Positions 9,146 to 33,267 of a stretch of DNA of 48,409 nt are shown here, piece by piece. Within the stretch, counting starts at the first letter, position 1. Each line of letters opens with the position of its first letter. The position numbers and the translations under genes are program-made. Origin of the DNA: Hydrogenophilales bacterium (GTDB lineage Bacteria; Pseudomonadota; Gammaproteobacteria; Burkholderiales; Thiobacillaceae). The notes under the pieces were generated by a model that was not told the origin of the DNA, did not search any database, and saw nothing but the letters and a program-made list of their open reading frames with translations. The DNA lies in contig JAGXGP010000008.1 of the NCBI GenBank assembly GCA_024636775.1, positions 1 through 48,409 of the forward strand, in the 5' to 3' direction.

Positions 9146-9324
9146 ATCTTTACCTTTGGCTAGCAAATGCAAGCATCGGGGATGCTAGGCGGCAAGCGTT
9201 ACGCGCGTGTGAAGATATGGCGCATTGCGGGTTACAGGCTGAGGGAGAAAACCAGTGAGTTGGAAAAAATCCTTCATATTCTTGTCATCGGCCCCCCCTA
9301 TGCTCTGTGCCCAAGGGATGGGGC

Positions 9325-10119: not shown

Positions 10120-10167
10120 GGTCGGCAGGTTGCGCGCCCGCGCCAGTGCCAAAGCTTCGCCGCAGCA

Positions 10168-10189
10168 TGAGCCGACCGGCTCAGTTTTC
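10168..10189 (+). terminator. Probable terminator after the EpsA-like gene
   Basis: A stem TGAGCC / GGCTCA with loop GACC is followed by GTTTTCC. The T-run is short, so termination may be partial. Confidence 0.6.
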
Positions 10190-10362
10190 CTCTTCATCTC
10201 CCCGCATCGCATGTCATCCACCCCCCCTAAAGTGGCCCCTGTCCGCACACATAGCGGGCCTGATTTCCGGTTGGCCTGGCGTTTCCGGCAGGCCTTCCCC
10301 ATAGGGGGGCGGAAAGGTTCACATCTTTCTGGGTCTTTCGTTTATTCAAAGAGGAGCACTAC

Positions 10363-11238: not shown

Positions 11239-11304
11239 TCGCAGGTGAGCGAGTCATGTGCACTCGATGAGCGCACATGGCGCACAGGAAATTGTTGTGA
11301 TTAT

Positions 11305-11329
11305 GGCTGCCGGCGGTACGCCGGCAGCC
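11305..11329. repeat. GC-rich inverted repeat upstream of the 499-residue secreted protein
   Basis: An 11-base-pair perfect stem GGCTGCCGGCG / CGCCGGCAGCC around GTA lies 36 bases before the ATG at 11365. No T-run follows on either strand. It may be a weak terminator for the PEP-CTERM gene, a leader hairpin or a protein site. Confidence 0.55.
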
Positions 11330-11364
11330 GAACCCGAACGTTTATTGAATTTAGGAGATAGACC

Positions 11365-12864: not shown

Positions 12865-12908
12865 GCAGGCTCGATCTGTCCGGGCTGGGTTGAGCCGGAT
12901 AGTCTGAT

Positions 12909-12940
12909 GTCCACCCCGCGGCAACGCGGGGTGGACTTTT
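12909..12940 (+). terminator. Rho-independent terminator after the 499-residue protein gene
   Basis: A 12-base-pair perfect stem GTCCACCCCGCG / CGCGGGGTGGAC with loop GCAA is followed by TTTT. It separates the upstream gene from the two-partner secretion genes. Confidence 0.9.
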
Positions 12941-12981
12941 GTGTTTGCGGCTTGGTGTTCGTGAAGCACGGGCATAAAGCA

Positions 12982-13020
12982 GGCAAGCCTTTGCCGACGC
13001 GATGTCGGCAAAGGCTTGCC
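12982..13020. repeat. Perfect 17-base inverted repeat before tpsB
   Basis: The arm GGCAAGCCTTTGCCGAC is exactly inverted around GCGAT. It ends 25 bases before the start codon at 13046. No T-run follows. If transcribed it would form a very stable hairpin close to the ribosome site, so it could limit translation of the transporter. It could also be a second terminator or a protein-binding site. Confidence 0.65.
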
Positions 13021-13045
13021 GCTGTTTGTAGAGAATGTATCGACA

Positions 13046-14611: not shown

Positions 14612-14629
14612 ATGAGCCGAATGGCTCAT
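14612..14629. repeat. Small inverted repeat between tpsB and tpsA
   Basis: ATGAGCC / GGCTCAT with loop GAAT begins directly after the tpsB stop codon. No T-run follows, so complete termination is unlikely. It may tune the ratio of transporter to cargo mRNA. Confidence 0.4.
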
Positions 14630-14730
14630 GAACGCTGCAACAAAAAAATACCCATCTGCAGGTTAACGTAAGCACACAAGGCAGGCCGCCGAACAACGCT
14701 TGAGCATGCGGCTGTCATCAGGAGAATTCA

Positions 14731-20700: not shown

Positions 20701-23700
20701 GCAACGTTTACGGCAGGCGGCGCATTGGGCAGTGGGAATCTGGCGGTGACCACCGATACGCTGAGGCTGGGCGAAGGCAACAAGAAAATTCAGGGTTATG
20801 GCGGAGTGACGGTCACGGCCAGCGAGTTGATTGGTGCAGGCACGGGCACGCTTGATGTGGATGCGCCGGTGACGCTTAACCTAGCACGCATCAGCGGCGA
20901 GCGTGGCGCAAATCAGGAACTGAATGCCAACGGCGCATTGGTGGTGGCTAATCGCCTCGCTGACCACGCGCTAGCGCCGGTTACCGCGCTGGGTGCGAAG
21001 TGGGCGTTGTCGGGGACGCGCGTTGATTTCAATTCGCGTGCCGAACTGCCGTCAGGAAGTTTCAAACTCAGCGCCCGGAGTGGCGATGTGAAACTCGGCT
21101 CTGAAGCCAAAGTGGATGTCGCCGGGCGCGCTGTGCAATTCTTCGATGTGAGCAAACCCAGTTGGGGCGGTACGGCGGAATTCGTTAGTGACGTGGGCAA
21201 TGTGGAATTTGTCGCCGGGTCGAATGTGGATGTGTCCGCAGCGGCAGGCGGTGACGCGGGCACGTTGATCGTGCGCGCGCAAAACGGCGAAGTCAGTATT
21301 GCCGACAGAACGGTAAAAGGCGACGTGGCGGCGGATGCTGACGGCCGGCGCGGCGAAGGCGCGCGCGTGGTCCTCGACACCGGCACGCTCGCCAGTTTCT
21401 CCGCCCTCAATACGGCGCTCAATAGTGGCGGCTTTGACGGCGAACGCGACTTGCGCGTGCGGACTGGCGACGTGGCTATCGCAGCCAGTGACACGGTGGA
21501 GGCGCTCAACATCAGGATCGCCGCGGACGGTGGCACACTTGATGTAGCGGGCACACTCGATGCCTCCGGTAAGGATGCGGGACGGATTGAACTGTTTGCA
21601 AAAGACGACGTAAACGTACTCGCCACGGCCACACTTAAAGCCGTCTCCAGTGACGCAAACGAAGACGGCGGCGACATCGAGATCGGCAGCCGCAGCCGCG
21701 ATGGCTTTATCAACCTGCTTGCAAGTAATCCTGGCAAAGGCTTCAATGTGGCTGGCGGCGCGGGCGGACAGGGCGGCACGGTGTTGCTGCGCGCGCAACG
21801 CACCGCGAGCGATGTGTATATCGGCGCGCTCGATAGCCGCATCACTGGGGCGCGCTCGGTGGCGGTCGAGGCCTTGAAGGTATACGGCAACAATATCAAC
21901 ACGATCAACACGCTCACTGCGACAGGGGGTAGCGGTACGACTTTGAGTCTGGCAACGATCAATGCTGACAATACCGCCTATGCGGTGAATCACGCGGCAA
22001 TCAAAACGCGTTTGGGCAAGACGGCCGATGCCGGCTTCCATATTCTTAGCGGTGTGGAAGTGCGTGCGGCCGGCGATCTCACGCTCAGCAACGACTGGAA
22101 CCTGGCAACCAGCCGGGCGGGCGGTGAAGCCGGCATGCTGACTTTGCGTGCGGCAGGAAGTCTTAAACTTAACAACAATCTATCGGATGGTTTCAGTCAT
22201 GCCATACCTTGCACGACGGCAGCCTGCTCGGCTACCACGCCTTCGCCTGCAATTTTGCAAGCGGGCGAATCGTGGTCGTACCGATTAATCGCGGGCGCCG
22301 ATGAAGCGGCCGCTAATCCGCTGGCAGTAAAGGCGGGCAGCCATGACGTGACGCTTGCGGCTGGCAAGCTGATCCGTACAGGCACCGGCGATATTCGTAT
22401 CGCATCTGGCCGCGACATCGTGCTGGCAGATAAGCAGTCTGCTATTTACACCGCCGGTCGGGTGGCCGATGCGCTCACTGGTTTCGTCACACCCAATGCG
22501 GTACTGAAACCTGTCTTTTCGCAAGACGGCGGCGATGTCAGCCTCGCCGCGCTGGGCGATATCAGCGGCAAGCCTTCGGCACAACTCTATTCGCAATGGC
22601 TGTATCGCCAGGGTGCGATCAATCCGGCAACCGGGGATTACACCCAGCAACCTGCCTGGTGGGTACGTTTCGATCAGTTCCAGCAGGGGGTCGGCGCACT
22701 CGGTGGCGGCGATGTCACCCTCACCGCGGGCGGCAAAGTAATAGATGTGTCGGCGAGCGCACCGACACAGGGGCGCACCGTCGGTACTGCGCCGGCCAAT
22801 AGCCAGCTTGTGACCACAGGCGGTGGTGATGTGACAATCAAGTCGGGGAGCGATATTCTGGGTGGGTCTTACTATGCAGGCCGAGGTGATTTGGCGCTCC
22901 AGTCCGGCGGCCGAATTGGCGTCAGCGATCAGAAAATAGACTCCAATACTGATCCGATATCGACAATACTCGCGCTGGGTGATGCACAGGCGCGCGTGCG
23001 GGCATCCACTGATGCAACGATCAGTAATGTTCTTACGCCGCATTTACTTAACCCCAGCGCGGGCAATCTGAAAACCCAGTTCCCATTTCTGACAACACCC
23101 ATCATCAGCTTTTATTCGACCTATGGAGAGGATAGCGGTGTCGACCTGCAAAGCCTGTCCGGGAAGGTGGGTTTGACCCACGACAGTCTGCTCGTCACCA
23201 AGAGTCAATTTGTCAATCAGTCTCCTTCCCAGCCGAACGCCTGGCAATTCCTGCCCCCCAGCCTGCAGGCAACCAGTTATCAGGGCGCGATAGAAATCGG
23301 GGGCGGCTTTGCTGACCTGATACTGGCACCCGGTGCCCAGAGCAATCTCACGTTGTTGGCAGCCGATTCGATTACGCTTAAACACAGCCTGAGTCTGAGT
23401 GATATTGACGCGGGCCTGATTCCGAACGCAGTTCGACCTGCCAATATCGCTTCAAATCTTGCGAGTGCAAAAATGGCGCTGGATATTTTGATCAGAGACC
23501 CGGTCTCGCCCAATAGCCTGCGCCCATCCACCCCAACACATCTGGGCGATCCAAAACCGGTTCGTATCTACGCGGTAGCGGGCGATGTGAAAGGCGTTAA
23601 CACATCCAGCAATACGACTTCCACCATTCTCGATGTGTCGAAACGGGCTGTATTGAAGGCGGGACGGGATGTGAGCGATTTCGCTGTGTATATCCAGCAT

Positions 23701-25014
23701 ACCGATACGGCGGATGTCAGTAGCGTGGAAGCTGGACGCGATATTGTGTTCAGCTCAACAAATGACCGGCGTGAACACGAGCAGATACGGATCGGCGGCC
23801 CGGGCCGACTCGAAGTCACCGCAGGCCGCAACATTGATCTCGGCACGTCCGGCGGCATCGTCAGCCGAGGCAATGCGGATAATCCTAACCTTCCTCGCGC
23901 AGGTGCAGATTTGCATCTGGCCGCAGGAGTCGGGGCGAAGGGAGTCGATTATCTGGGCGCAGTGGATCGGCTGGTCGCCATGCTGGAGGCCACAGCACCG
24001 GATGACGCTGCGTTGTGGCAGGCGCGCTGGCTGACCGGTGACGATACGTTGGCCAACGCGGATGCCCTGGCAGCGGTGAAAGTGGTGGATACGCAGGACG
24101 CCGATACTCAGCGCGAACGTGTGCGTGCCCTGTTGTTCTCGGCATTGCGCACCACCGGCCGCGATTCCAATAATGCCGCCAGCCCGTACGCAGGCGATTT
24201 CGCGCGCGGCTACGCTGCGCTGGAAACGATCTTCCCCGGCATTAGCGAGAAAACGGAAACAGGCGATTTTAAAAATTATGCTGGTGAGATAAATCTATTT
24301 GCCAGCCGGGTCAAAACCGAACGCGGCGGCGATATCGAATTCTTTGCCCCCGGCGGCGACGTGATCGTTGGCCTGCCCAACACGCCAGCAGCGCTGGTGA
24401 ATGTGGGCAGCAACGTGCTTGGCATGGTGGCGGTTGAAAAGGGTGATATCAAAGGCGCCAGTCGTGGCGATATACGGGTCAACCAGTCGCGGATTCTGAC
24501 GGTCGGAGGGGGCGATGTGCTGTTGTGGTCCAGCGAAGGCGATATCGATGCTGGAAAAGGCAAGAAAACGGCTTCGGCGGTGCCACCTCCGGTAATCAGT
24601 ATTGACGGCGAAGGCAACGTCACCGTGGAACTGCAAGGTGCAGTGACCGGCAGCGGTATTGGCGCACTTGAAAGCCCCGGTGTGATAGCGGGCAACGTCG
24701 ACCTTATCGCCCCCAAGGGCATCGTCAACGCGGGTGATGCAGGCATCCGCGCGGGCAACCTGAACATCGCGGCGCAGGTGGTGCTGGGGGCGGACAACAT
24801 TTCCGTTTCGGGCAGTTCTAGCGGTACGCCGGTGGCGGATACCAGCGCGGTGTCGGCAGCCTCCAGCGGCGCCAGCAACGCAGGCGGTGAGGTGTCCAAT
24901 GCCACCGCCGCGCTGTCGCAAAACCTGGCCGATGCCGCGCGCGCGGCCGAAGAACTGAAGCAGGCCTTCAAGCCGACCTTCATCACGGCCGAAGTGATAG
25001 GGCACGGAGAATGA
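14731..25014 (+). CDS. Giant filamentous-haemagglutinin-like TpsA exoprotein (3427 residues)
   Basis: The protein starts with an extended signal peptide region (MNRNRYRLIFSPALGMM...VAETARS) and a hydrophobic core, with likely cleavage after residue 54 (GPVQA). A haemagglutination-activity (TPS) domain follows at about 60-320, including the MVNSNGIAFMGG motif (an NPNG-like signature) needed for recognition by TpsB. The rest is a very long right-handed beta-helix of degenerate repeats with many GGDV- and GGxI-type turns. A C-terminal region (about 3100-3380) recalls the DUF3739 domain of filamentous-haemagglutinin-family proteins. Only two cysteines are visible in the mature chain, C2494 and C2499. 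AGGAGA precedes the ATG. The expected role is a secreted or surface-tethered adhesin of about 340 kDa. Confidence 0.92.
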   Translation: MNRNRYRLIFSPALGMMVPVAETARSRGKIGPCKAASGSALALAGVLLAGPVQAELPVESANFAAPGTTASYQVNGAQAYMSQVGNKAVVNFQSFNVSAGHDVQFRQVDSLATQNLVQGANFASLVRIHDINPSIIAGSISQAAGQQANVTMVNSNGIAFMGGSQVNLNSFTASTLDMKDSFLDNFLPGNSAAPQFEGAIDGGAARGFIKVFEGAQITAGQRGRVMLIAPTVVNKGTVKAPDGQIITAAASKVYLRSAGGEIAGLLVEVDSPEGLSTYDAVNPDIKAGELDGQTVALADPEHDKLGNVTNLGELTTPRGNVTMIGFAVNQNGIARATTSVVSGGSVYLLAKDTAKDVSTQTPSALRAGRVTLGQNSLTEILPEVDDRTTTQDGTGGIALDRPSTVKILGQDIRMAGSSYEQDGKEKPGAKGARIVAPAGIVSLTALDNPSKETNSSTSIFGGATPVSSKARVHIASGAKIDVAGLNDVEVEAGRSTVEIDLRGNELKDSPINRLGALTGEKVFIDVNRALENSDSGKTTLVARDVLIDLKAQQQRNVAERSTQGGAVEVYSQGAAIIESGAVIDLSGGSLKFTPGSVKTTLLTSNGKLIDVADANAETHYDGIATRYVKKYPKWNREEIIDLGQSFRYDAGYGEGKDAGSLAVFGIGGVYADPAIAGRTLTGERQREAGIQPAGARFTVGYDDTPGPDDKNAVAIGGVTVQDYKLNQAVELTANRAALSGFKPGDVLPAVLQLDSALLGKDKVAQLTVYSNQAVTVRDALRGPQGGAVTLAGSRMTVNADIDVASGVIDLSAVNTIGQLPDALPAPKLTIADGVSLTTRGTWSNDLPGSGARTADAPRIDGGTIKLAAKSLADGANNFIAQGELTLGQGVTLDADGGGWLKANGKVKAGDGGEVALSGYAVRGLERANVHAYGLGKGGKLKLGSNRIQIGGTVDATPGTLNLNTDWFERGGFADYALTALTRLEVAKDTEIKPVLISRELRPGFTLRASGSRVADFGDLVVRDARVRQGVDLLLAAADSKAETGKVLIGQGARIELDPKAQASLNAFDLIDIEGTIRTPGGTILARTSNASSTIWLGRDAVLDTAGVAQTYVDHRGLTQGEVLAGGTVDLAAPAIVSEVGSRVDVSGAAPVRLDLPNENGGLGRTIGSDAGTVKLFAGSSALLDGNFAAHAGGSTQRGGDFDMVLGQFVDPGPNISLTPLTLSLAQSVVPQADDLQPGDVVTSRDTRIAADRLEVAGFDRLRFASKDAIQLEDGLALGAGRSLPLRELALDAASIRTAGGNAALSAETVRLGNYDPIRRAASSASTDTGVLAVNARQLELAGKFKLEGMARAELNAVETIRLAGVTTGTTRPTGELQTTADLVFHGAVVAPTTYTQYRILAPQHSVAFSRTTDTPTQPLSALGSLTVEARDIVQDGNLWAPFGQMDFKASESLVFKNGSLTSVAATPGSITPFGKVQNGRTWLVDLDAAKVPDGQLEQSELAEKSIRTAAKTIDMQAGAKLDLAGGGDLQAYEFTVGPGGSRDILADKNTYAILPAYTGGIAPGDAQEERSFDRKLGEAVYLSGVPGLKDGVYTLLPAHYALLPGAYAVKLNTGVKDLLPGQAYSRQDGVRIAAGYITDTRVNAPQDARWSGIEVLTHDQVRARSEFMLTRASDFFAESRNRPQDGGLLSIATTGSGSDSLKLDAIYKLAAGTGGRGAAVDVSALKLAIVNGNPSGIDPAATPLDVDKLNALGADSLLLGGTRSTSGDTTTLTVGADTVTLANDASHALEAGEILLVAADTLTLKSGSVINAQGEEGDAGHYETAGGGALVRAAATTATFARTGNPDRTQGTLVGEAGSKIIAADSITLDATKENAYKGTAIYNKNGVMVVGNLAVGASRVNLGAAPVTAEGISYSQAELNELDLKELTLTSYSTFDLYGDVHVGQLDANGKPVLQNLTLQGAGLAGIDNVGQTARINAKNFTLTNPNNAATFTAGGALGSGNLAVTTDTLRLGEGNKKIQGYGGVTVTASELIGAGTGTLDVDAPVTLNLARISGERGANQELNANGALVVANRLADHALAPVTALGAKWALSGTRVDFNSRAELPSGSFKLSARSGDVKLGSEAKVDVAGRAVQFFDVSKPSWGGTAEFVSDVGNVEFVAGSNVDVSAAAGGDAGTLIVRAQNGEVSIADRTVKGDVAADADGRRGEGARVVLDTGTLASFSALNTALNSGGFDGERDLRVRTGDVAIAASDTVEALNIRIAADGGTLDVAGTLDASGKDAGRIELFAKDDVNVLATATLKAVSSDANEDGGDIEIGSRSRDGFINLLASNPGKGFNVAGGAGGQGGTVLLRAQRTASDVYIGALDSRITGARSVAVEALKVYGNNINTINTLTATGGSGTTLSLATINADNTAYAVNHAAIKTRLGKTADAGFHILSGVEVRAAGDLTLSNDWNLATSRAGGEAGMLTLRAAGSLKLNNNLSDGFSHAIPCTTAACSATTPSPAILQAGESWSYRLIAGADEAAANPLAVKAGSHDVTLAAGKLIRTGTGDIRIASGRDIVLADKQSAIYTAGRVADALTGFVTPNAVLKPVFSQDGGDVSLAALGDISGKPSAQLYSQWLYRQGAINPATGDYTQQPAWWVRFDQFQQGVGALGGGDVTLTAGGKVIDVSASAPTQGRTVGTAPANSQLVTTGGGDVTIKSGSDILGGSYYAGRGDLALQSGGRIGVSDQKIDSNTDPISTILALGDAQARVRASTDATISNVLTPHLLNPSAGNLKTQFPFLTTPIISFYSTYGEDSGVDLQSLSGKVGLTHDSLLVTKSQFVNQSPSQPNAWQFLPPSLQATSYQGAIEIGGGFADLILAPGAQSNLTLLAADSITLKHSLSLSDIDAGLIPNAVRPANIASNLASAKMALDILIRDPVSPNSLRPSTPTHLGDPKPVRIYAVAGDVKGVNTSSNTTSTILDVSKRAVLKAGRDVSDFAVYIQHTDTADVSSVEAGRDIVFSSTNDRREHEQIRIGGPGRLEVTAGRNIDLGTSGGIVSRGNADNPNLPRAGADLHLAAGVGAKGVDYLGAVDRLVAMLEATAPDDAALWQARWLTGDDTLANADALAAVKVVDTQDADTQRERVRALLFSALRTTGRDSNNAASPYAGDFARGYAALETIFPGISEKTETGDFKNYAGEINLFASRVKTERGGDIEFFAPGGDVIVGLPNTPAALVNVGSNVLGMVAVEKGDIKGASRGDIRVNQSRILTVGGGDVLLWSSEGDIDAGKGKKTASAVPPPVISIDGEGNVTVELQGAVTGSGIGALESPGVIAGNVDLIAPKGIVNAGDAGIRAGNLNIAAQVVLGADNISVSGSSSGTPVADTSAVSAASSGASNAGGEVSNATAALSQNLADAARAAEELKQAFKPTFITAEVIGHGE

Positions 25015-25218
25015 ATCAGGGTAATCCGGTAAGGATAAGCAGCCATGGATAGGTATAAGCGTAATACTTGCTTGAAATAGAACCCGTGGCCGAGTCGGCA
25101 GGTACGTTCGGCTCATTTCCAGCATTGTTTCGGAGCGGGTTTTTGTAACGTTGTTTCTCCAAAATCGCAATCGCACTGTGCGAATTAGTCGCATTTTCTG
25201 TTGCCATTGGAGAAACAC

Positions 25219-27192
25219 ATGAAGCATCTGGCCCACCTCCTCGCTGTTGGCGTGTTGTTATCGCTTTCCGTGCATGTTCAGGCTGCCTGTCTGGATACCC
25301 GCACCAGCGTTTTTGCCGGCTCGGTGGATTCCACCGTGCCCAACAAAGAGGTGGGCGGGGTGTGCATGAACGATCTCATCATTGACGCTGCTACCGAGGG
25401 CGCCAACTGGGGCAACCATGGCGCGTTTGTGAGGACGGTGTCCCGGTTGACGCGCGATTGGAGGAAAGCGAAAGTCATCAACCATAAGGAACGCAGCCGG
25501 ATCGTCCACGCTGCGGCGCGCTCGGATGTGGGCGACACCTTGCTGGTCAAGATTGCCGCTATCAACGATTTCCACGGCCAGTTGTTCAGCCCGGGAAGTT
25601 TTGCCGGCAAGCCGGTGGGGGGTATCGATACGCTGGCGGCTTACGTCCATGCCATCCGCGCCAAATCACCCAATAGCGTGGCGGTGTCGGCTGGCGACCT
25701 GATCGGTGCGACGCCGCTGGTTTCGGCCCTGTTCCACGACGAACCCACGATCGAAGGCATGAATATCCTGGGCCTCGACTTTAATGCCGTAGGCAACCAC
25801 GAATTCGACGAAGGGCGCGACGAACTGTTGCGTATGCAGCATGGTGGCTGCCACCCCATCGACCCCAACTCCTGTCAGGGCAATGCCGTGGGCACGCCTT
25901 TCCCGTTCGAGGGCGCCCGGTTCAAGTTCCTGGCGGCCAACGTCACCGAAAAGGCCGACGGCAAGACCCTGTTCCCGGCCTATAAGATCAAGAATTTCCA
26001 AGGAAACAATGTGGCCTTCGTCGGCATGACGCTGGCGGCCACGCCCAGTATTGTCACCCCCAGCGGGATTTCTACGCTCGATTTCAAGGATGAGGCCGAT
26101 ACGGTCAATGCACTGATTCCCGAACTGAAAGCGCGGGGTGTGGAAACCGTCGTGGTGCTGATACACGAAGGTGGCCGGGATACCACCGGCACCGTCATCA
26201 ACGACTGCAGCAACGTCTCGGGCGAGATTCTCGACATCGTCCAGCGTCTGGATGACGCGGTGGACCTGGTCGTCAGCGGCCATACGCATCAGGCCTATCT
26301 GTGCAGCCTGCCTAACAGTGCGGGCCGTAACATCCCGGTGACCAGCACCAACGCACAGGGGCGGAGCGTCACCGAGATCGATCTCGTCATCAATACCAGG
26401 ACGCGCGACGTGGTGAGTATCGCCGTTGACAACGTGCTGGTGGATCGCAGCAACACTGCAGTCACCCCGGTAGCCGCGCTAACTGCGCTGGCGGATAACT
26501 ACAATGCCCTGGCCGCCCCGCTGGCCAACGAGGCTATGGGCAACATCACGGCTGACATCAGCCGCAGCAACAATGCCGCGGGCGAATCTGCACTGGGCGA
26601 TGTGATAGCTGATGCGCAACTGGAAGCCACCGCCGCTCCCGAACTGGGTGGCGCAGTGATCGCCGTAATGAACCCAGGCGGTATTCGCGCCGATTTTATT
26701 TATCCGAGCAGCGCGGCAGGAGAAGGTGATGGCGTGGTGACCTACGGCGAAGCGTTCAACGTGCAACCGTTTGGCAATTCCCTGGTGACCAAGACGTTCA
26801 CCGGGCAACAGATTGTTGACCTGCTTGAGCAACAGTGGGGCGAGCTGCAGCCTTTCGCCCGCATCCTGCAAGTGTCGAATGGCCTCAGCTACCAGCACAC
26901 GTTCGACACCACGAGCGCGAACTTCGCCGCACAAAAAGGCGGCAGCTATGTATGTGACGGCAGCGTCAGGCTCAATGGCGTGGCAATCGACAAACTCGCC
27001 AGCTACCGCGTGACCATGAACTCCTTCCTGGCTTCGGGCGGCGATAATTTCACCGTGTTCAACCAGGGCACCAGCCAGCTGGGCGGTGCTCTCGATCTCG
27101 ATGCGATGCAGCAGTATTTCGCGGCGCATAACCCGGTCGTTCCAGGGGCGCAGGCGCGTATTAACAGGCTGGTGACCTGTCCGACGCCTTAA
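25219..27192 (+). CDS. Secreted 5'-nucleotidase-family metallophosphoesterase with extra N-terminal module
   Basis: The 657-residue protein has a signal peptide (1-22) and the two domains of the 5'-nucleotidase/UshA family. The metallophosphatase motifs are DFH (D117, H119), GDL (near 160), GNHEFDEG (about 192-199) and SGHTHQAY further on. The C-terminal nucleotidase domain includes NPGGIRAD and the substrate-clamp-like SGGDNF. Between signal peptide and enzyme lies a module of about 85 residues with two cysteines and the pattern NHGAFV...LTRDWRK...NHKERSRIVHAAARSDVG, which I recognise from other uncharacterised secreted proteins. It should hydrolyse nucleotides outside the cytoplasm. The ATG at 25219 has GGAG eight bases upstream. 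It lies between tpsA and the ExbB-type operon. Confidence 0.92.
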   Translation: MKHLAHLLAVGVLLSLSVHVQAACLDTRTSVFAGSVDSTVPNKEVGGVCMNDLIIDAATEGANWGNHGAFVRTVSRLTRDWRKAKVINHKERSRIVHAAARSDVGDTLLVKIAAINDFHGQLFSPGSFAGKPVGGIDTLAAYVHAIRAKSPNSVAVSAGDLIGATPLVSALFHDEPTIEGMNILGLDFNAVGNHEFDEGRDELLRMQHGGCHPIDPNSCQGNAVGTPFPFEGARFKFLAANVTEKADGKTLFPAYKIKNFQGNNVAFVGMTLAATPSIVTPSGISTLDFKDEADTVNALIPELKARGVETVVVLIHEGGRDTTGTVINDCSNVSGEILDIVQRLDDAVDLVVSGHTHQAYLCSLPNSAGRNIPVTSTNAQGRSVTEIDLVINTRTRDVVSIAVDNVLVDRSNTAVTPVAALTALADNYNALAAPLANEAMGNITADISRSNNAAGESALGDVIADAQLEATAAPELGGAVIAVMNPGGIRADFIYPSSAAGEGDGVVTYGEAFNVQPFGNSLVTKTFTGQQIVDLLEQQWGELQPFARILQVSNGLSYQHTFDTTSANFAAQKGGSYVCDGSVRLNGVAIDKLASYRVTMNSFLASGGDNFTVFNQGTSQLGGALDLDAMQQYFAAHNPVVPGAQARINRLVTCPTP

Positions 27193-27332: not shown

Positions 27333-27372
27333 TGGAAGCGGGTATGGTCCGTTCGGGCCATACCCACTTCCA
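27333..27372. repeat. Near-perfect 40-base inverted repeat before the ExbB-type operon
   Basis: TGGAAG-C-GGGTATGG pairs with CCATACCC-A-CTTCCA with one mismatch, and the centre can pair further (CCG/CGG around TT). It lies 59 bases upstream of the ATG at 27432. There is no T-run. It is a strong candidate for a leader hairpin or a dyad operator controlling the operon. Confidence 0.6.
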
Positions 27373-27431: not shown

Positions 27432-29093
27432 ATGCGTGTACTTGCTTTTACGATTGCCCTGTTGCTTTCCCTGTTTTCCGCGACCAGCCATGCCTGGTGG
27501 AACGAGGATTGGAGTGCGCGCAAGAAAATCACGCTGACGAACTCGGCAGGCGAGGTGAGTGACGCTCCGGTGCTGATCCGTCTGCATACCGGCAATTTCG
27601 ATTTCCTGTCGGCCAACGAAAACGGCAGCGACCTGCGCGTGCTGGCGGGAGACGACGCGACCGAACTCAAATTTCATATCGAAAAATGGGATGGCATCAA
27701 TCAATTGGCGCTGGTGTGGGTGAAGTTGCCCAAGCTTGCCGCCAGCACCGATGCCTGGCTGTACTTCGGCAACGAGGCGGCGACGCCCGCGTCCGACGCA
27801 AAGGCCACGTATGACGCCGCCAGCGCGGCATATCACTTTGCCGAGGCGAGCGGCAATCCGGTGGACAGCGGGCCAGATGGGCTCAATGCAACAGCATTCA
27901 GCGGCGAGCGTGTGGCGGCGTCATTTGCCAACGGCGGTGCGAAATTCAATGGGTCACAAACCCTGACGCTGCCCGCGATCAATGCAGCGGGTGGGATGAG
28001 CGTGGCGATGTGGGTCAAGCCTGTTTCGCTTGATGGCGCGCTCATGCAGGCGAGTGGGTTGAACGCCGTACTGACTGGCGGAATGCTGAATGTTCAGGCA
28101 GGCGCGGCCAATATCACCGCGTCGGCACCGCTGACGGCGGGAAAATGGCACTACGTGGCGATCACTGTGGGCAGCACGCTGAAGGTCTATATCGACGGCA
28201 AGCTGGCTGGCGAAGCGCCCGGCGCGGCGTTGCCTGCCGGGGCGCTGACCGTGGGTGCGGGTTACAGCGGCGAGATGGATGAGGTGCAATTGAGCGGCAA
28301 GGTGCGAGATGCCGCCTGGATCGCGGTGCAGGCCGCGCAAGGCCCCACTGGCGCGCTGGTGGCGCTGGGCGCAGACGAATTCAGCGAAGGTGGCGATGAA
28401 GGCGGCATTTGGGGCACCTTGTTTGGCGCGCTGACCGTGGATGGCTGGGTCGCGATCGGCATCCTGGCGGTCATGCTGGTGATCGCGCTGTGGATCATGG
28501 TCGTCAAGGCCATTTATGTGAATCGTGTCGATCACGCCAACCGCCAGTTCATGCACAGGTTCCGCGAGCTGTCGACTGACCTCGGAGCGATCGACAAGAC
28601 GCAGGGCATGGCGGACGCGTTCAGGCATTCCTCGCTGTACCGCCTCTACCACGTTGCCTCGGTCGAATTGTCGCATCGTTTCAAGGACACCGATGCCGCG
28701 CATCTGGCCGATAAAAATCTGTCGCCGCAGTCGCTCGACGCGATTCGCGCCAGTCTGGATACCGGGCTGGTCAAGGAAACCACACTGATGAACAAGCTTA
28801 TGGTGATGCTCACCATAGCGATTTCCGGCGGGCCGTTTATTGGGCTGCTGGGCACGGTGATGGGAGTGATGATCACCTTTGCCGTGATTGCTGCCACTGG
28901 TGATGTCAACGTGGCGGCGATTGCGCCCGGTATCGCGGCAGCGTTGATGGCGACCGCAGCGGGGATGGCCGTGGCGATTCCTGCCCTGTTTGGTTACAAC
29001 TATCTGAATTCACGCATCAAAGCCATTACCTCCGATATGCGTGTGTTCAACGATGAGTTGATCACCAAGCTGGCCGAAAACTACAGCCGCTGA
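27432..29093 (+). CDS. ExbB/TolQ/MotA-type proton channel with DUF2341-LamG-like exported domain
   Basis: This 553-residue protein joins two parts. Residues 1-20 are a signal peptide, about 21-115 resemble DUF2341 (WWNEDWSARKKITL opening), and about 125-300 resemble a LamG/concanavalin-A-like jellyroll. Residues 338-358 are a first membrane helix, followed by a cytoplasmic segment and two further helices (about 458-482 and 494-520) with GGPFIGLLGTVMGVM, the MotA/TolQ/ExbB proton-channel signature. ExbB normally has no such periplasmic head. It is the first gene of a tight operon with exbD (36 bases later), a TonB-like gene, a porin, an ankyrin and a coiled-coil gene. It should form a proton-driven motor with ExbD. 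The head may bind sugar or protein at the outer membrane, which is inference. Confidence 0.9.
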   Translation: MRVLAFTIALLLSLFSATSHAWWNEDWSARKKITLTNSAGEVSDAPVLIRLHTGNFDFLSANENGSDLRVLAGDDATELKFHIEKWDGINQLALVWVKLPKLAASTDAWLYFGNEAATPASDAKATYDAASAAYHFAEASGNPVDSGPDGLNATAFSGERVAASFANGGAKFNGSQTLTLPAINAAGGMSVAMWVKPVSLDGALMQASGLNAVLTGGMLNVQAGAANITASAPLTAGKWHYVAITVGSTLKVYIDGKLAGEAPGAALPAGALTVGAGYSGEMDEVQLSGKVRDAAWIAVQAAQGPTGALVALGADEFSEGGDEGGIWGTLFGALTVDGWVAIGILAVMLVIALWIMVVKAIYVNRVDHANRQFMHRFRELSTDLGAIDKTQGMADAFRHSSLYRLYHVASVELSHRFKDTDAAHLADKNLSPQSLDAIRASLDTGLVKETTLMNKLMVMLTIAISGGPFIGLLGTVMGVMITFAVIAATGDVNVAAIAPGIAAALMATAAGMAVAIPALFGYNYLNSRIKAITSDMRVFNDELITKLAENYSR

Positions 29094-29129: not shown

Positions 29130-29534
29130 ATGCAGGTTCAGGATGACAACGAACCATACGACCAGATCAATGTAGTGCCAATGCTCGATCTGGCCTATGT
29201 GCTGCTGGTGATTTTCATCATCATGACCACCGCTTCGGTTCAGGGCATCAAGGTCAATCTGCCGAAGGCGAGCGATACGCCCAGTCTGGCCAAGCCGCAG
29301 ACCAAGGCCATCACTATCACCGAGGGCGGACAGATTTTTCTCGATACCTATCCGGTGAGCCTGGAGGAATTGCGTACCCAACTGGCCGCGCTGAAGGCCG
29401 TTAATCCCGAGCTGCCCGTGGTGGTGAAGGGCGACACCGTGGTCGAGTATGGCCGCGTGATGGAAGTGCTTGAGCTATTGGGTCAGCTCGGCATCACCCA
29501 GCTCGGTCTCGTCACCCAAAAACTGGTGAAGTAG
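29130..29534 (+). CDS. exbD: ExbD/TolR-type biopolymer transport protein
   Basis: The 134-residue protein has a short cytoplasmic N-terminus, one membrane helix (about 18-34) and a periplasmic domain, as in ExbD/TolR. The conserved proton-carrying aspartate is D20 in VPMLDLAYVLL, the position of D25 in E. coli ExbD. The periplasmic part includes GDTVVEYGRVMEVLELLGQLG, the usual family ending. It forms the stator with the ExbB-type protein encoded just upstream. Its stop codon is immediately followed by the GTG of the TonB-like gene, so translation is coupled. Confidence 0.94.
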   Translation: MQVQDDNEPYDQINVVPMLDLAYVLLVIFIIMTTASVQGIKVNLPKASDTPSLAKPQTKAITITEGGQIFLDTYPVSLEELRTQLAALKAVNPELPVVVKGDTVVEYGRVMEVLELLGQLGITQLGLVTQKLVK

Positions 29535-30209
29535 GTGATCGATGACGACAGCAAGCCGGCATGGGTGCGCTGGGGCGGTGCCGCGCTGGCACTGGCTGTC
29601 GCCGTACTGCTCGTGCTGTGGCTGCGGGATATGCTGCAATCGGCCAAGCCGTCGAAACCGATGAAGTTGCAGCAGATCACCCTGATGCGCCCGCCTCCGC
29701 CTCCGCCGCCTCCGCCACCGGAAGAAAAGCCACCCGAGCCCGAGGTGAAGGAGGAGGTGAAGCTCGACGAGCCGCAGCCGACACCTGAGCCGCAGCAGGC
29801 CGACGCCCCGCCGCCCGGGCCGGACTTGGGCATAGATGCTGAAGGCAGCGGCAGTGGCGACGGCTTCGGGCTGGTTGGAAAAAAAGGCGCGGCCGACCTG
29901 ATCGGCGGCGGTACCAAAGGTAATCCGTGGGCGTGGTACGACGCTCTGGTGAACGACGCCGTGAACTCGGCTGTTCAGACCGCGCTGGGGCGCGAGAAAG
30001 CACTCAAGAACAAGAACTACAAGGTGATCGTGAGGGTATGGATCGGCAGCGACGGCCAGGTTACACGAGCAGCTTTGATGGACAGCACGGGCGATGCCAG
30101 GGCGGACGAGGTACTGAAGGAGGCGTTGAAGGGAATGCGTGCCCTGCGCGATAGCCCGCCGGCAGATATGCCGCAACCGATGAAAATACGCGTGGTTTCA
30201 CGCGCCTGA
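29535..30209 (+). CDS. TonB-like energy transducer
   Basis: The 224-residue protein has a membrane anchor (about 14-30), a proline/glutamate-rich periplasmic spacer (about 53-95, with ten consecutive prolines), a glycine-rich segment and a C-terminal TonB-like domain (about 155-223). The last carries the VRVWIGSDGQVTRAALMDSTGD pattern of the family. It starts at a GTG directly adjacent to the exbD stop. TonB transmits proton-motive force from ExbB-ExbD to an outer-membrane partner. No TonB-dependent receptor with an obvious plug domain is in the window, so the partner may be the porin at 30220 or the two-partner secretion pore. That is inference. Confidence 0.88.
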   Translation: MIDDDSKPAWVRWGGAALALAVAVLLVLWLRDMLQSAKPSKPMKLQQITLMRPPPPPPPPPPEEKPPEPEVKEEVKLDEPQPTPEPQQADAPPPGPDLGIDAEGSGSGDGFGLVGKKGAADLIGGGTKGNPWAWYDALVNDAVNSAVQTALGREKALKNKNYKVIVRVWIGSDGQVTRAALMDSTGDARADEVLKEALKGMRALRDSPPADMPQPMKIRVVSRA

Positions 30210-30219: not shown

Positions 30220-31830
30220 ATGAAAAGTATGTCGATTCGAAAAAAACTACTGGCGGTTGCCATCACAGCATTCTTCGCGGGTAGCGCAGTTGCTGCGCCT
30301 GACGACAAGCGTGCGGATGTGGAAATGTTGCACGAAACTACCTTGAGTCTGATTCAGTTACTGGTCGAGCAGGGCGTGTTGAAGCAGGAAGCCGCCGATG
30401 CGCTGCTGAAGAAGGCTGAGCAGCGCGCCGTCGAGAAAACCGCGCAGGCCAAAGCTGCCGAGGCCGAAGCAGGCAATGCCGAAACGGGTAAGGACGTGGT
30501 ACGCGTGGTGTATGTGCCCGAACACGTCAAACGCGAAATCCGCGAGCAGGTGCGCCAGGAAGTGGTGGCGCAGGCCAAGCTGGAACGCTGGGGCGACGTC
30601 AACGCCGTACCAGAATGGCTCGACCGGCTGAAATGGGACGGCGACATCCGCCTGCGTTACCAGGACGATTTGTTCGCAGACGGCAACGCGCCAGAAACGG
30701 CTTTCCAGACAATTGGTCAGAACATTGGCAATACGCTGGAAGATCGCCAACGCGAGCGTGTTCGTCTGCGTTTGGCATTGAATGCGAACGTCACCAGTAA
30801 CGTGGACGCCGGTATCCGCATCACAACCGGCAATACTTCCGATCCGGTCTCCACCAACCAGACGCTCGGCAACACCGGAAATAAATACAGTCTGGTACTC
30901 GACCGCGCCTTTCTCAAGTTGCGACCGACCGATGGTTTGACACTGTGGGGCGGCCGGATCCCCAATCCTTTCTTTTCCACTGACCTGGTTTGGGATAGCG
31001 ACGTCAATTTTGAGGGCGCTGCACTGAGCTACGCGCCGGGTTCGCAGGAGCTGCAACGCGAATTCAAGCCCTTCGTTACGGCGGGCGTGTTTCCCTTGCA
31101 GGAAATCGAGGGAAAAACCGGCATAGCGTCCAAAGACAAGTGGTTGGTCGCTGCGCAGGCAGGGCTGGAGTGGGTACCGTCGACACGTGCTCGCTTCAAA
31201 TTGGGCGCAGCGTATTACCAGTACAAGAATGTGTCGGGCGTTCGAAACCTGACCCCAACCACGACAGGGCAGTATGACCTCAACTCGCCGCAGTTTCGCC
31301 AGAAAGGAAATACGCTTTTCGTGATTGATAGCGACGCCAACAACAATGGAAACCCAAACAGCGAGTTTGATCCGGTTTATGGGTTAGCGGCCGATTACCG
31401 CATTGCCAACCTGACGCTGGTCGCCGATTTCGCCGAGTTCTTCCCCGTCCACGTCATCGGCAGCTTCGACTGGGCGCGCAACGTCGGCTTTGACCAGGCT
31501 GAGATTCTGACGCGTACCGGTCAGAACATCCAGCCGGAGACCGACGGTTTTCAGGCCAGACTCACCGTTGGCTATCCCAAAGTCAGTGAACGTCATGAAT
31601 GGCAGGCCTATGTTGGCTACCGCCATTTGGAGCGTGACGCAGTTCTGGATGCCTTCACCGATTCGGACTTCCACCTCGGCGGTACCAACGCCAAGGGCTT
31701 TATGATCGGTGGAGAGTACGGGATTTACAAAAACACCTCAGTTTCAGCGCGCTGGATGTCGTCGGACGAAATCAGCGGGCTGCCGTTGTCCATCGACGTG
31801 TTCCAGCTCGACCTCAATGCCAAGTTCTAG
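30220..31830 (+). CDS. Putative outer-membrane porin with N-terminal coiled coil
   Basis: This 536-residue protein has a signal peptide (about 1-26), an alpha-helical, Ala/Glu/Lys-rich segment (about 28-110) likely to form a periplasmic coiled coil, then a beta-barrel region with repeated amphipathic strands ending in a C-terminal aromatic (LDLNAKF). The layout matches the 'putative porin' family (Porin_5). It starts 10 bases after the TonB-like gene and overlaps the ankyrin gene by 14 bases. As an outer-membrane protein encoded directly behind tonB, it is a candidate target of the energy module, although this family is not known to be TonB-dependent. Confidence 0.83.
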   Translation: MKSMSIRKKLLAVAITAFFAGSAVAAPDDKRADVEMLHETTLSLIQLLVEQGVLKQEAADALLKKAEQRAVEKTAQAKAAEAEAGNAETGKDVVRVVYVPEHVKREIREQVRQEVVAQAKLERWGDVNAVPEWLDRLKWDGDIRLRYQDDLFADGNAPETAFQTIGQNIGNTLEDRQRERVRLRLALNANVTSNVDAGIRITTGNTSDPVSTNQTLGNTGNKYSLVLDRAFLKLRPTDGLTLWGGRIPNPFFSTDLVWDSDVNFEGAALSYAPGSQELQREFKPFVTAGVFPLQEIEGKTGIASKDKWLVAAQAGLEWVPSTRARFKLGAAYYQYKNVSGVRNLTPTTTGQYDLNSPQFRQKGNTLFVIDSDANNNGNPNSEFDPVYGLAADYRIANLTLVADFAEFFPVHVIGSFDWARNVGFDQAEILTRTGQNIQPETDGFQARLTVGYPKVSERHEWQAYVGYRHLERDAVLDAFTDSDFHLGGTNAKGFMIGGEYGIYKNTSVSARWMSSDEISGLPLSIDVFQLDLNAKF

Positions 31831-32629
31831 GCTGGCGTTTTTTGCCCTGCTGCTCACATCTACGGCGTGGGGCGGACAGCCTTGGGATGACAGCGAACTG
31901 GAATGGCTGATGCAGGAAGCCGATGCCCACCCGCCGCGCGAGGCGCGCCTGAATCTGCCGCCGGAGCGTTTCGCCGCGATCGCAACCGACGGTAATTTCG
32001 TGATGCCACGCCAGCAGGTGGGCGACGAGGCCAGACTGATGGATGCCGCGCGTCGCAGCGACATCGAAGCGGTGCGCGCGCTGCTCAAGTCTGGCGCGAA
32101 TCCGAACATGGGCGATTACTGGCGCGATGTGCCGCTGATGGAAGCCGTGCGGCAAGACAATCTGGAACTCACACAGATACTGATTGACGCCGACGCCACC
32201 CCCAACATCAAGGGGCGCGGCTATACGCCGCTTGGCCTGGCTGCCAAAAATGGCAACGTGCGCCTGGTCGAGATGCTGTTGCGCGCCGGCGCCGACCCGG
32301 ATCGCAAAAGCGACGATGGCGACACGCCCATGCATGGAGCAGCACTGATGGGGCATGCGCGGGTGATTAACGCATTGGCTCGCGTCCGGCCAGATTTGAG
32401 GCAATTCAATCGTGACGGCTTGTCGCCCCTTGCCGTGGCTGCCGCCAATGGGCAATACGATGCCGCACGTGCCCTGGTCGTTGGTGCGGGTGCATCCCCG
32501 GATTGGGGCGACAAAAAACTTCATCCGCCGTTATGGTGGGCATTTTCGGTCGGCGATCACGATATGGCCAGACTACTCCTTGAACTTGGCGCGGCGCCGG
32601 GCCAGTTGCCCGTAGGGGCTTTGCAATGA
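31817..32629 (+). CDS. Exported ankyrin-repeat protein
   Basis: The 270-residue protein starts at an ATG inside the 3' end of the porin gene, in another frame. That start gives a signal peptide (about 1-19, SRLAFFALLLTSTAWGG). Residues 72-260 hold about six ankyrin repeats (for instance EARLMDAARRSDIEAVRALLKSGANPN and GYTPLGLAAKNGNVRLVEMLLRAGADP). The protein has no cysteine or enzyme motif and should be a periplasmic scaffold that binds a partner. The next gene overlaps its stop by four bases. A periplasmic ankyrin protein in an ExbB-ExbD-TonB operon suggests assembly or regulation of that complex (inference). Confidence 0.85.
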   Translation: MPSSRLAFFALLLTSTAWGGQPWDDSELEWLMQEADAHPPREARLNLPPERFAAIATDGNFVMPRQQVGDEARLMDAARRSDIEAVRALLKSGANPNMGDYWRDVPLMEAVRQDNLELTQILIDADATPNIKGRGYTPLGLAAKNGNVRLVEMLLRAGADPDRKSDDGDTPMHGAALMGHARVINALARVRPDLRQFNRDGLSPLAVAAANGQYDAARALVVGAGASPDWGDKKLHPPLWWAFSVGDHDMARLLLELGAAPGQLPVGALQ

Positions 32630-33267
32630 AACGATTTGTTATATCCATTTTTCTCGTAGCGATGGCAGCCACCCCGGCATGGGCGGCCAATGACAGCCGC
32701 GAAAGGCAGATGCTGCGCCGGATGCAGCAACAGGTGCAGCAGGTCGATCAGGCGCGTGCGCAGGCTGAGCAGGAAAAAGCCACTGCGCTGGCGGACAAGG
32801 AAACGGCGGAGCGTGACCTGGAGAAGACGCGTTCGGATACGGCCGCGACCAGGCGGCAGCTGGCAGGTGAACGCTCGGCGCGCATCCGGATTGAGCGTGA
32901 ACTTCAAGCTTTGCAGACGGAACGAGATATGCTGAAAGCGCGTCTGGCCGATACCGAGAAACAGTTGGCTGCTAGCACGGCCCTGCAAAGCTCCATCGCC
33001 CAAACGCTCGCCCAGGCCGAATCCGAAAAAAAACAGGCAGCGGCCCGGCTTGCTGGCAAAGAGCAGGATTTGAACGTCTGCCAGAGCCACAATGGACGGC
33101 TTTATGGCATTGGTCGCGAGATGATGCAGAAGTATCGCGACAAATCCTGCCAGGATGCACTCGCGCAGGCCGAACCTTTCACCGGCCTGAAAAAGGTCGA
33201 AATTGAAAACCTGCTGGAAATCTGGCGTGACCGCCTGGATCGGGAAACGCTCAGTGCCACCCCCTGA
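32626..33267 (+). CDS. Exported coiled-coil protein, last gene of the ExbB-type operon
   Basis: The 213-residue protein has a signal peptide (1-20, ending TPAWA), a long coiled coil (about 25-150, rich in Gln, Glu, Arg and Ala) and a small C-terminal domain with two cysteines (CQSHNG and KSCQDALAQ) that could form a disulfide. The ATG overlaps the ankyrin gene stop. Such proteins often act as periplasmic spacers or clamps. I do not recognise a named family. It closes the operon; no strong terminator is evident after it. Confidence 0.75.
   Translation: MKRFVISIFLVAMAATPAWAANDSRERQMLRRMQQQVQQVDQARAQAEQEKATALADKETAERDLEKTRSDTAATRRQLAGERSARIRIERELQALQTERDMLKARLADTEKQLAASTALQSSIAQTLAQAESEKKQAAARLAGKEQDLNVCQSHNGRLYGIGREMMQKYRDKSCQDALAQAEPFTGLKKVEIENLLEIWRDRLDRETLSATP

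What the first reader, a model, noticed from the sequence alone, without database searches (positions are those of the whole stretch)
27432..29093. ExbB-type proton channel carrying a DUF2341-LamG-like periplasmic head
The sequence shows a signal peptide, about 280 exported residues with a DUF2341-like and a jellyroll (LamG-like) region, then a three-helix ExbB/TolQ/MotA channel. Known ExbB, TolQ and MotA proteins lack such a head. A stator that reaches into the periplasm and may bind a sugar or protein directly suggests a motor whose output or control differs from canonical Ton and Tol.
Basis: partly seen in the sequence, partly recalled or inferred. Interest (0 to 1): 0.75.

Follow-up and report, generated by a model that had tools for sequence, protein, structure and literature searches.

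The report
Lectin-headed motor for giant surface protein
A proton-driven inner-membrane motor part carries a sugar-binding-type head in the periplasm, and its genes nearly always occur together with one kind of giant secreted surface protein and one kind of outer-membrane barrel, which suggests a motor dedicated to that surface protein.

Summary
In detail: window 27432-29093 encodes a signal peptide, DUF2341, a LamG-type jellyroll and a complete TolQ/ExbB-type channel. The fusion is conserved, and mBio 2025 (PMC12505986) already mentions DUF2341 appendages in passing, so 'ExbB proteins lack such a head' is too strong.

The larger result is the company it keeps. ExbD, a TonB-like protein, Porin_5 and a coiled-coil protein follow in 57 of 58 loci; a two-partner-secreted giant (TpsA) lies upstream in 61 of 63. 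Among 369 genomes of the class, headed ExbB, DUF3739 (the TpsA mark) and full-length Porin_5 occur in 22, 24 and 24; 21 hold all three. Among 319 genomes of the phylum, headed ExbB and DUF3739 mark the same 10.

These TpsA proteins end in a conserved strand motif (PSF[IL]TVEV[IL]GFG[DE]), found in 59 of 73 TpsA ORFs and 0 of 2032 others; it resembles a TonB box and the TonB motor box.

Best reading: a dedicated Ton-type motor acting across the periplasm on a tethered TpsA and its barrel. Linkage is shown; mechanical coupling is inferred. No held paper describing the system was found. Import through Porin_5 is the main rival.

The parts
13016..14611 (+). TpsB, two-partner-secretion outer-membrane transporter (POTRA_2 + ShlB)
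   Evidence: Pfam ShlB 1e-21, POTRA_2 1.3e-14
14731..25014 (+). TpsA, 3427-aa giant exoprotein: ESPR signal + TPS domain at the N-terminus, DUF3739 near the C-terminus
   Evidence: Pfam ESPR, TPS, DUF3739 2.8e-39; DUF3739 placed at 24508-24834
24970..25011 (+). C-terminal strand motif KPTFITAEVIGHGE of TpsA
   Evidence: strict pattern in the last 60 residues of 59 of 73 TpsA ORFs (fragments included) and 0 of 2032 other ORFs of 150 aa or more in the same 80 loci
25201..27192 (+). 5'-nucleotidase (Metallophos + 5_nucleotid_C), the occupant here of a phosphoesterase slot between TpsA and the motor; ATG at 25219 is a likelier start than the listed TTG
   Evidence: Pfam; slot survey
27432..29093 (+). 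headed ExbB: signal peptide, DUF2341, LamG-type jellyroll, ExbB/TolQ channel
27621..27869 (+). DUF2341 region of the head (residues 64-146)
27951..28325 (+). LamG-type jellyroll of the head (residues 174-298)
28725..29042 (+). MotA_ExbB channel core (residues 432-537); Thr475 and Thr508 invariant, Ala503 in place of the TolQ Glu
29130..29534 (+). ExbD (134 aa) with the transmembrane Asp (Asp20, aligned to E. coli ExbD Asp25)
   Evidence: Pfam ExbD 2.5e-28; alignment to ExbD structures
29535..30209 (+). TonB-like transducer (224 aa, GTG start): TM helix without SHLS motif, motor-box-like QQITLMR before the poly-proline stretch, TonB C-terminal domain
   Evidence: Pfam TonB_2 and TIGR01352 over cut-off
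30220..31830 (+). Porin_5 outer-membrane protein: N-terminal helices + 16-strand barrel, no plug domain in the model
   Evidence: Pfam 7.1e-176; model and fold search
31817..32629 (+). ankyrin-repeat protein with a likely signal peptide (probable start 31817 by eye; a related gene is found in a subset of loci)
   Evidence: Pfam Ank_2 (scanned from 31769); 24 of 58 loci
32626..33267 (+). coiled-coil-type protein with a likely signal peptide, last conserved gene of the set
   Evidence: 58 of 58 loci with enough downstream sequence; no Pfam family

Best explanation
The gene encodes the channel subunit (a pentamer in known relatives) of a dedicated Ton-type motor: headed ExbB, ExbD and a TonB-like transducer. 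Its client is a DUF3739-type two-partner-secreted giant protein (TpsA) together with the Porin_5 barrel. Shown here: the architecture, the conserved operon, the near-obligate co-occurrence across genomes, and a conserved TpsA C-terminal strand motif. Inferred: TpsA is threaded out through TpsB and its C-terminus stays in the periplasm, as in HMW1 and HxuA. Proton flow moves ExbD and the TonB-like protein. The TonB C-terminal domain, or the ExbD groove, grips the TpsA tail by strand addition and applies force, to complete, tension or release the surface protein. The jellyroll heads form a crown around the motor that docks a periplasmic partner (TpsA tail region, TonB C-terminal domain or Porin_5 helices). 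Porin_5 is the outer-membrane anchor or conduit beside it.
For: (1) ExbD, TonB-like, Porin_5 and coiled-coil genes all follow in 57 of 58 loci with at least 5.5 kb downstream; TpsA lies upstream in 61 of 63 with at least 5 kb upstream. (2) A Porin_5-seeded sample: 19 of 23 loci carry the headed ExbB; 3 of the 4 misses end at contig edges, and in the fourth (L155, genome G069) the motor lies about 22 kb from DUF3739 on the same contig. (3) Co-occurrence in 369 genomes: headed ExbB 22, DUF3739 24, full-length Porin_5 24, all three 21; pairwise Fisher p 5e-30 or less. In 319 genomes of the phylum: DUF3739 10, headed ExbB the same 10, though in G689 only residues 275-551 lie on the contig. In 60 near relatives: ExbB of this family in 21 (in G017 only its channel end, at a contig edge), Porin_5 in 23 plus one weak hit, TonB-like in 22, TpsA C-terminus in 18; nested apart from contig ends. 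(4) TpsA tail motif: 59 of 73 TpsA ORFs against 0 of 2032 others. It fits the D-box pattern of hydrophobic and hydrophilic residues with a proline before it (PMC10907165, passages) and contains LTV as in the colicin M TonB box ETLTV (PMC11658791, passages); I made no statistical test of that resemblance. (5) 22 of 77 parsed tails carry two cysteines after the motif, like the disulphide lock that holds HMW1 and HxuA C-termini in the periplasm (PMC5422565, passages). (6) Motor parts look competent: Thr475 and Thr508 in 40 of 40, ExbD Asp, a loosely defined motor box in 78 of 89 TonB-like proteins. (7) Porin_5 has no plug in the model, so it does not look like a TonB-dependent receptor.
Against: No physical interaction was tested. 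The strand motif could instead pair with TpsB. Genomes share ancestry and the two large samples overlap in part, so the Fisher values overstate independence. 3 of 8 genomes whose motor locus showed no adjacent TpsA gave no DUF3739 at all (G724, G726, G727), though their completeness is not given. The TonB-like protein lacks the SHLS motif that TonB and TolA use to dock on the motor (0 of 89). The channel has Ala where TolQ has Glu. The review read says folding is thought to drive two-partner secretion, without such a motor (PMC5422565, passages).
Confidence: 0.5

Rival explanations
1. Import machine: TpsA is a surface catcher, Porin_5 the outer-membrane conduit, and the motor with its TonB-like protein opens Porin_5 to take up a nutrient released by the neighbouring phosphoesterases (phosphate or phospho-organics). 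The heads bind the incoming ligand.
For: 23 of 31 loci of the group nearest the window (L026-L056, head identity 55% or more) carry a 5'-nucleotidase, PhoX, phytase-like, GDPD or choice-of-anchor-I gene near the motor, against 0 of 40 control stretches of 20 kb (families). HxuA/HxuB/HxuC couples a TpsA to a TonB-dependent receptor (PMC5422565, passages). Porin_5 accompanies the motor in 57 of 58 loci.
Against: Only 2 of 49 of the remaining loci carry such a gene, and not between TpsA and the motor; 2 of 29 in the second set, whose own genes supplied some queries; 2 of 20 stretches upstream of TpsB. The queries were chosen after seeing the loci. I know of no established activity for choice-of-anchor-I. 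No Pho-box excess in the window. Porin_5 shows no plug in the model and I saw no TonB-box-like strand in its aligned N-terminus.
Confidence: 0.25
2. Adhesin-moving machine: the motor drives TpsA along or across the surface, as GldLM drives SprB or AglRQS drives gliding, giving dynamic adhesion or motility.
For: Motor plus giant surface protein plus outer-membrane barrel is a similar parts list (recalled for the gliding systems). SiiAB is cited as a motor for type I secretion and AglRQS for motility (PMC12204202, passages). The Porin_5 model is nearest to the attachment porin OmpM1.
Against: No gliding gene was named over cut-off in the window genes scanned. The TonB-like protein has only a weak match to GltJ (E 0.0016, 17.6 bits against a cut-off of 450). 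Motility of these organisms was not examined.
Confidence: 0.1
3. Ordinary extra ExbBD-TonB set with an incidental periplasmic decoration; the linkage to TpsA and Porin_5 is inherited operon order without direct coupling.
For: Extensions on such channel subunits are described as frequent (PMC12505986, section), and long ExbB extensions exist (PMC9008036, passages).
Against: The partners stay together in a genome even when apart on the map: G069 (about 22 kb), G195 (about 18 kb), G369 (different contigs), and 5 of 8 genomes whose motor locus shows no adjacent TpsA have DUF3739 elsewhere. All 19 ExbB genes visible beside Porin_5 in the second sample keep the head.
Confidence: 0.1

Closest known systems
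ExbB-ExbD-TonB (Ton) and TolQ-TolR-TolA (Tol) motors
   Same: Channel fold (target TM 0.74-0.84), Thr ring, ExbD Asp, motor-box-like strand, TonB-type C-terminal domain
   Different: About 300-residue DUF2341-LamG head; Ala503 where TolQ has Glu; no SHLS motif in the transducer; plugless Porin_5 rather than a TonB-dependent receptor in the operon; DUF3739 TpsA as companion
Serratia marcescens ExbB with periplasmic extension (HasB system)
   Same: Signal peptide plus exported N-terminal extension on ExbB; the extension contacts the transducer's C-terminal domain (PMC9008036, passages)
   Different: That extension is about 50 residues, Ala/Pro-rich and likely unstructured; here two folded beta regions
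DUF2341/DUF3450 appendages on non-flagellar MotA-type subunits (PMC12505986)
   Same: Same domain named as an appendage of unknown function
   Different: The passages and two sections read give no operon, TpsA, Porin_5 or function
SiiAB proton channel of the Salmonella giant adhesin system
   Same: A motor of this superfamily tied to a secretion system (cited for type I secretion in PMC12204202, passages; the giant adhesin is recalled)
   Different: Type I secretion there, two-partner secretion here; no TonB-like protein or Porin_5 there (recalled)
HMW1/HMW1B and HxuA/HxuB/HxuC two-partner secretion
   Same: TpsA with C-terminus retained in the periplasm by a disulphide loop; HxuC ties a TpsA to TonB-driven uptake (PMC5422565, passages)
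   Different: hmw and hxu are described as three-gene operons without ExbBD-TonB; absence of DUF3739 there is recalled
OmpM1 attachment porin of Veillonella
   Same: Best structural match of the Porin_5 model
   Different: No other Pfam domain, such as an S-layer-homology domain, was found in Porin_5

Membership tests
MotA/TolQ/ExbB proton-channel superfamily | MotA_ExbB domain over curated cut-off and ExbB/TolQ fold | tested here: met
   93.5 bits against 22.9; Foldseek to TolQ/ExbB
MotA/TolQ/ExbB proton-channel superfamily | Conserved Thr ring (E. coli ExbB T148/T181, PMC6778125 passages) facing the ExbD Asp | tested here: met
   T475 and T508 in 40 of 40; ExbD Asp20 aligned to Asp25
MotA/TolQ/ExbB proton-channel superfamily | Glu in TM3 (GIAEAL of TolQ; E176 in ExbB by recall) | tested here: not met
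   Ala in 40 of 40 aligned and in 78 of 80 ORFs, 2 not readable; the paralog L003 of the same genome also lacks it, so this does not exclude membership
ExbB or TolQ equivalogs proper | NCBIfam equivalog cut-offs | tested here: not met
   tolQ 119.5 of 221, exbB 70.8 of 206.2, exbB2 65.4 of 135.35
TonB/TolA force transducers | TonB-type C-terminal domain | tested here: met
   TonB_2 26.5 against 22; TIGR01352 29.8 against 27.1
TonB/TolA force transducers | Motor box (D-box) strand after the TM helix | tested here: met
   loose pattern in 78 of 89, alignment; in the window one position differs from the published rule (Gln for a hydrophobic residue)
TonB/TolA force transducers | SHLS motif in the TM helix | tested here: not met
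   0 of 89; His in the TM of 4 of 89
TonB-dependent nutrient import system | Outer-membrane receptor with plug domain and TonB box in the system | tested here: not met
   Porin_5 model has helices and 16 strands, no plug; no such receptor among the window genes scanned; the rest of the genome was not searched for receptors
Two-partner secretion (type Vb) | TpsB with POTRA and ShlB/FhaC domain beside TpsA with TPS domain | tested here: met
SiiAB-type adhesin motor | Association with a type I secretion system | tested here: not met
   the neighbour is two-partner secretion; no type I part among the window genes scanned
Lectin function of the head | Carbohydrate binding | not testable with these tools
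   only fold and family matches

The most novel reading that the evidence does not exclude
Energised two-partner secretion: a proton-driven Ton-type motor with a crown of lectin-type heads grips a TonB-box-like strand at the very C-terminus of a giant TpsA still held in its TpsB pore, and uses force to drive, tension, retract or release it. A class of two-partner secretion would then be motor-powered and mechanically controlled from the inner membrane.
Probability: 0.3. Interest if true: 0.88.

Novelty: new variant of a known kind. Interest (0 to 1): 0.72.

Why it matters
How a TpsA chain is pulled or pushed through the outer membrane, with no ATP or ion gradient at hand there, is posed as a question in a review of two-partner secretion (PMC5422565, passages). 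A family in which the TpsA is tied genome by genome to its own Ton-type motor makes that question testable. It also gives a candidate function to three poorly understood families at once: DUF2341-LamG heads on ExbB, DUF3739 and Porin_5. It supplies a short, mutable peptide motif to test.

Tried and rejected
Pho-box scan (TGTCAY-N5-TGTCAY, up to 2 mismatches): 6 matches against 10 expected, so no support for phosphate control in the window. Phosphoesterase slot as a family-wide theme: rejected, since it holds for 23 of 31 loci of one group and 2 of 49 of the rest. A control for the tail motif in other TpsA proteins of the same genomes was not possible: each of six genomes of 99-100% completeness has a single TPS-domain protein. 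Sequence searches of the PDB found nothing useful for the TonB-like protein, Porin_5 or the TpsA C-terminus; for the head the only match under 0.1 was an S-layer-domain protein (4qvs, E 7e-6). The looser regex matched 75 of 85 TpsA tails; the misses are partly close variants (L047-L049 and L051 carry STEV, L062 AVDV), partly divergent or N-masked tails. In the phylum search 5 of 15 hits are ordinary channel-only ExbB and were dropped from the count of 10. The partial, weaker Porin_5 hits (under 120 bits) were not counted as full-length; G282 (weak DUF3739 with a stop) was counted among the 24. The secreted-nuclease and PstS-like labels used for two queries were given by eye; the PstS-like ORF has no Pfam match and was left out, while the nuclease-like query stayed in. 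Searches for mechanism residues in PMC12215075 and PMC5903867 found no passage. Literature searches for this system. DUF3739 occurs in no held paper, DUF2341 in six, two of which also hold ExbB; I looked into one of the two. The held library is open-access PubMed Central only.
Full report
OBSERVATION. The reported gene is real. Window 27432-29093 (+) encodes 553 residues with a signal peptide, DUF2341 (residues 64-146), Laminin_G_3 (174-298) and MotA_ExbB (432-537), all three domains over Pfam cut-offs. The AlphaFold2 model (40-sequence alignment; mean pLDDT 81, pTM 0.54) is mainly beta over residues 29-317 and helical in the channel part. Foldseek matches the channel to TolQ and ExbB (target TM 0.74-0.84 in the rows shown) and the head to ConA-like lectin jellyrolls, the latter as fold similarity only. 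The window belongs to a Thiobacillus-like organism: the closest named relative is a contig of a Thiobacillus MAG with 98% identity over the head.

CONSERVATION OF THE FUSION. One scan of the genome collection with the head profile gave 447 stretches, 413 of them encoding relatives of the head; the best 80 were fetched (L026-L105). Record titles include Thiobacillus, Nitrosospira, Nitrosovibrio, Gallionellaceae, Sulfuricella, Rubrivivax and Hydrogenophaga. Thirty-nine aligned full-length relatives are 45-99% identical to the window protein. The RLHTGNF region of DUF2341 and the channel are the most conserved parts. Thr475 and Thr508, the ring threonines, are invariant in 40 of 40. The Glu of TolQ's GIAEAL is Ala in 40 of 40 and in 78 of 80 ORFs (2 unreadable). 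One paralog of the same genome (L003) also lacks it.

THE OPERON. In the 58 of 80 loci with at least 5.5 kb downstream, ExbD follows in 58, the TonB-like gene in 58, Porin_5 in 57 (in L102 a Porin_5 gene lies upstream instead), the coiled-coil gene in 58, and an ankyrin gene related to the window's in 24. A TpsA related to the window's lies upstream in 61 of the 63 loci with at least 5 kb upstream. It is missing in L086 and L104, whose surroundings look like polysaccharide-export loci by eye. In the window, TpsB (13016-14611) and TpsA (14731-25014; ESPR, TPS and DUF3739) are present.

A SECOND, PORIN_5-SEEDED SAMPLE. A search of 369 genomes of the class with PF16930 gave 24 genomes with a full-length match (over 460 bits), the window's included. 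Of the 23 other loci that I fetched, 19 carry headed ExbB. The four without it are three contig edges (L129, L137, L160) and L155, whose genome G069 has the motor about 22 kb from DUF3739 on the same contig. All 19 ExbB genes seen beside Porin_5 have the head.

CO-OCCURRENCE. In the same 369 genomes, headed ExbB (E at most 1e-30) is in 22, DUF3739 in 24 (23 over cut-off) and full-length Porin_5 in 24; 21 have all three. The four discordant genomes are G160, G163 and G259 (220-340 contigs) and G282 (weak DUF3739 with a stop). Pairwise Fisher p is 5e-30 to 3e-34. In 319 genomes of the phylum, DUF3739 is in 10 and headed ExbB in the same 10; in G689 only residues 275-551 of the ExbB lie on the contig, and five further hits are ordinary channel-only ExbB. 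The two samples share at least G000, G166 and G333, and the genomes share ancestry, so the p-values are descriptive. In 60 relatives, ExbB of this family is in 21 (in G017 only its channel end, at a contig edge), Porin_5 in 23 plus one weak hit (G058), the TonB-like gene in 22 and the TpsA C-terminus in 18. Each of the 18 also has the ExbB. The 3 ExbB genomes without the TpsA end (G007, G017, G021) have motor contigs that stop near or inside the operon; G018 and G033 show Porin_5 near a contig start without ExbB. Of 8 genomes chosen because the motor locus showed no adjacent TpsA (including one distant TpsA and one contig edge), 5 carry DUF3739 elsewhere and 3 do not. Six genomes of 99-100% completeness each have exactly one TPS-domain protein, so in these six the motor-linked TpsA is the only one found.

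THE TPSA TAIL. After DUF3739 and a variable Ala/Ser-rich linker, these TpsA proteins end in a short conserved strand, consensus [KR]P[ST]F[IL][TS]VEV[IL]GFG[DE]. A strict pattern occurs in the last 60 residues of 59 of 73 TpsA ORFs (fragments included) and 0 of 2032 other ORFs of 150 aa or more in the 80 loci. Of 77 tails parsed, 36 stop one residue after the motif, 22 have two cysteines after it and 19 are longer without Cys. The pattern fits the D-box rule (alternating hydrophobic and hydrophilic residues, then two hydrophobic and one hydrophilic, with flanking proline; here the proline is on the N-terminal side) in PMC10907165 (passages), and it contains LTV as in the TonB box ETLTV of colicin M (PMC11658791, passages). 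I made no statistical test of this resemblance. HMW1 and HxuA keep their C-terminus in the periplasm through a disulphide loop (PMC5422565, passages). That the present tail is periplasmic and is gripped by TonB or ExbD is my inference.

THE OTHER PARTS. ExbD keeps the essential Asp and aligns over its length with E. coli ExbD. The TonB-like protein has a TonB C-terminal domain over cut-off and a motor box by a loose pattern in 78 of 89 relatives. It has no SHLS motif (0 of 89) and a TM histidine in only 4 of 89. The Porin_5 model (mean pLDDT 77) has three longer N-terminal helices after the signal peptide and 16 strands of nine or more residues, with no plug. Its best structural match is OmpM1, the attachment porin of Veillonella (TM 0.44-0.46 by query, 0.71-0.73 by target).

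PHOSPHOESTERASE SLOT. Near the motor, mostly between TpsA and headed ExbB, the group nearest the window (L026-L056, head identity 55% or more, chiefly Thiobacillus and Nitrosospira) carries 5'-nucleotidase (as here), PhoX, PEP-CTERM PhoX-like, PEP-CTERM phytase-like, GDPD or PEP-CTERM choice-of-anchor-I proteins: 23 of 31 loci. The figure is 2 of 49 in the rest, 2 of 29 in the second set (whose own genes supplied some queries), 2 of 20 stretches upstream of TpsB, and 0 of 40 control stretches of 20 kb. The queries were picked after seeing the loci, so the control is lenient. The link to phosphate is a group feature, not a family one.

MECHANISM. Shown: architecture, operon, co-occurrence, tail motif, channel residues. 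Inferred: a 5:2 motor whose TonB-like arm or ExbD groove takes the TpsA tail as an added strand and applies force, with heads crowning the motor and docking a periplasmic partner. The Serratia ExbB extension that contacts HasB's C-terminal domain (PMC9008036, passages) is a precedent for the head contacting the transducer. SiiAB is a precedent for a motor tied to a secretion system (PMC12204202, passages).

NOVELTY. DUF2341 on a channel subunit is in print as a passing remark (PMC12505986, passages and two sections). The linkage to DUF3739 TpsA and Porin_5, and the tail motif, were not found in print, which cover open-access PubMed Central only and of which most hits were seen as listings. I rate it a new variant of a known kind (Ton/Tol-type motors).

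Noticed in passing
L142 (unnamed same-genus genome, G020:C15), 3220-9999 +: A 2259-aa repeat-rich surface-type protein (by eye) contains a DUF2341-LamG unit 33% identical to the head, so the head looks like a module shared with giant surface proteins.
   Followed up: partly
window 27334-27371: Near-perfect inverted repeat (GGAAGCGGGTATGG ... CCATACCCACTTCC) in the 239-bp gap before headed exbB, not followed by a T run; role unknown (read; not listed).
   Followed up: no
window 11365-12864 +: 499-aa ORF just upstream of TpsB with no Pfam or NCBIfam match.
   Followed up: partly
window 7325-11238: EAL-GGDEF-CBS protein (-), LuxR-type regulator and PEP-CTERM protein upstream of the TpsB/TpsA genes; c-di-GMP control is possible.
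   Followed up: no
L086, L102, L104: Motor genes lie beside genes that look like polysaccharide-export or exosortase genes by eye; in L086 and L104 no TpsA is adjacent.
   Followed up: partly
L143 (G024:C112) 7306-17999: A second headed ExbB-ExbD-TonB set without a Porin_5 hit, next to PEP-CTERM proteins, a 5'-nucleotidase with RTX repeats and a secreted-nuclease-like ORF (the last by eye).
   Followed up: partly
L144 (G018:C63): The TonB-like frame is interrupted by a stop while ExbD, Porin_5, ankyrin and coiled-coil genes remain, which looks like a decaying copy.
   Followed up: no
L028 7387-8106 -: A DsbC-type disulphide isomerase gene sits right after TpsA; some tails of the family carry two cysteines.
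   Followed up: no
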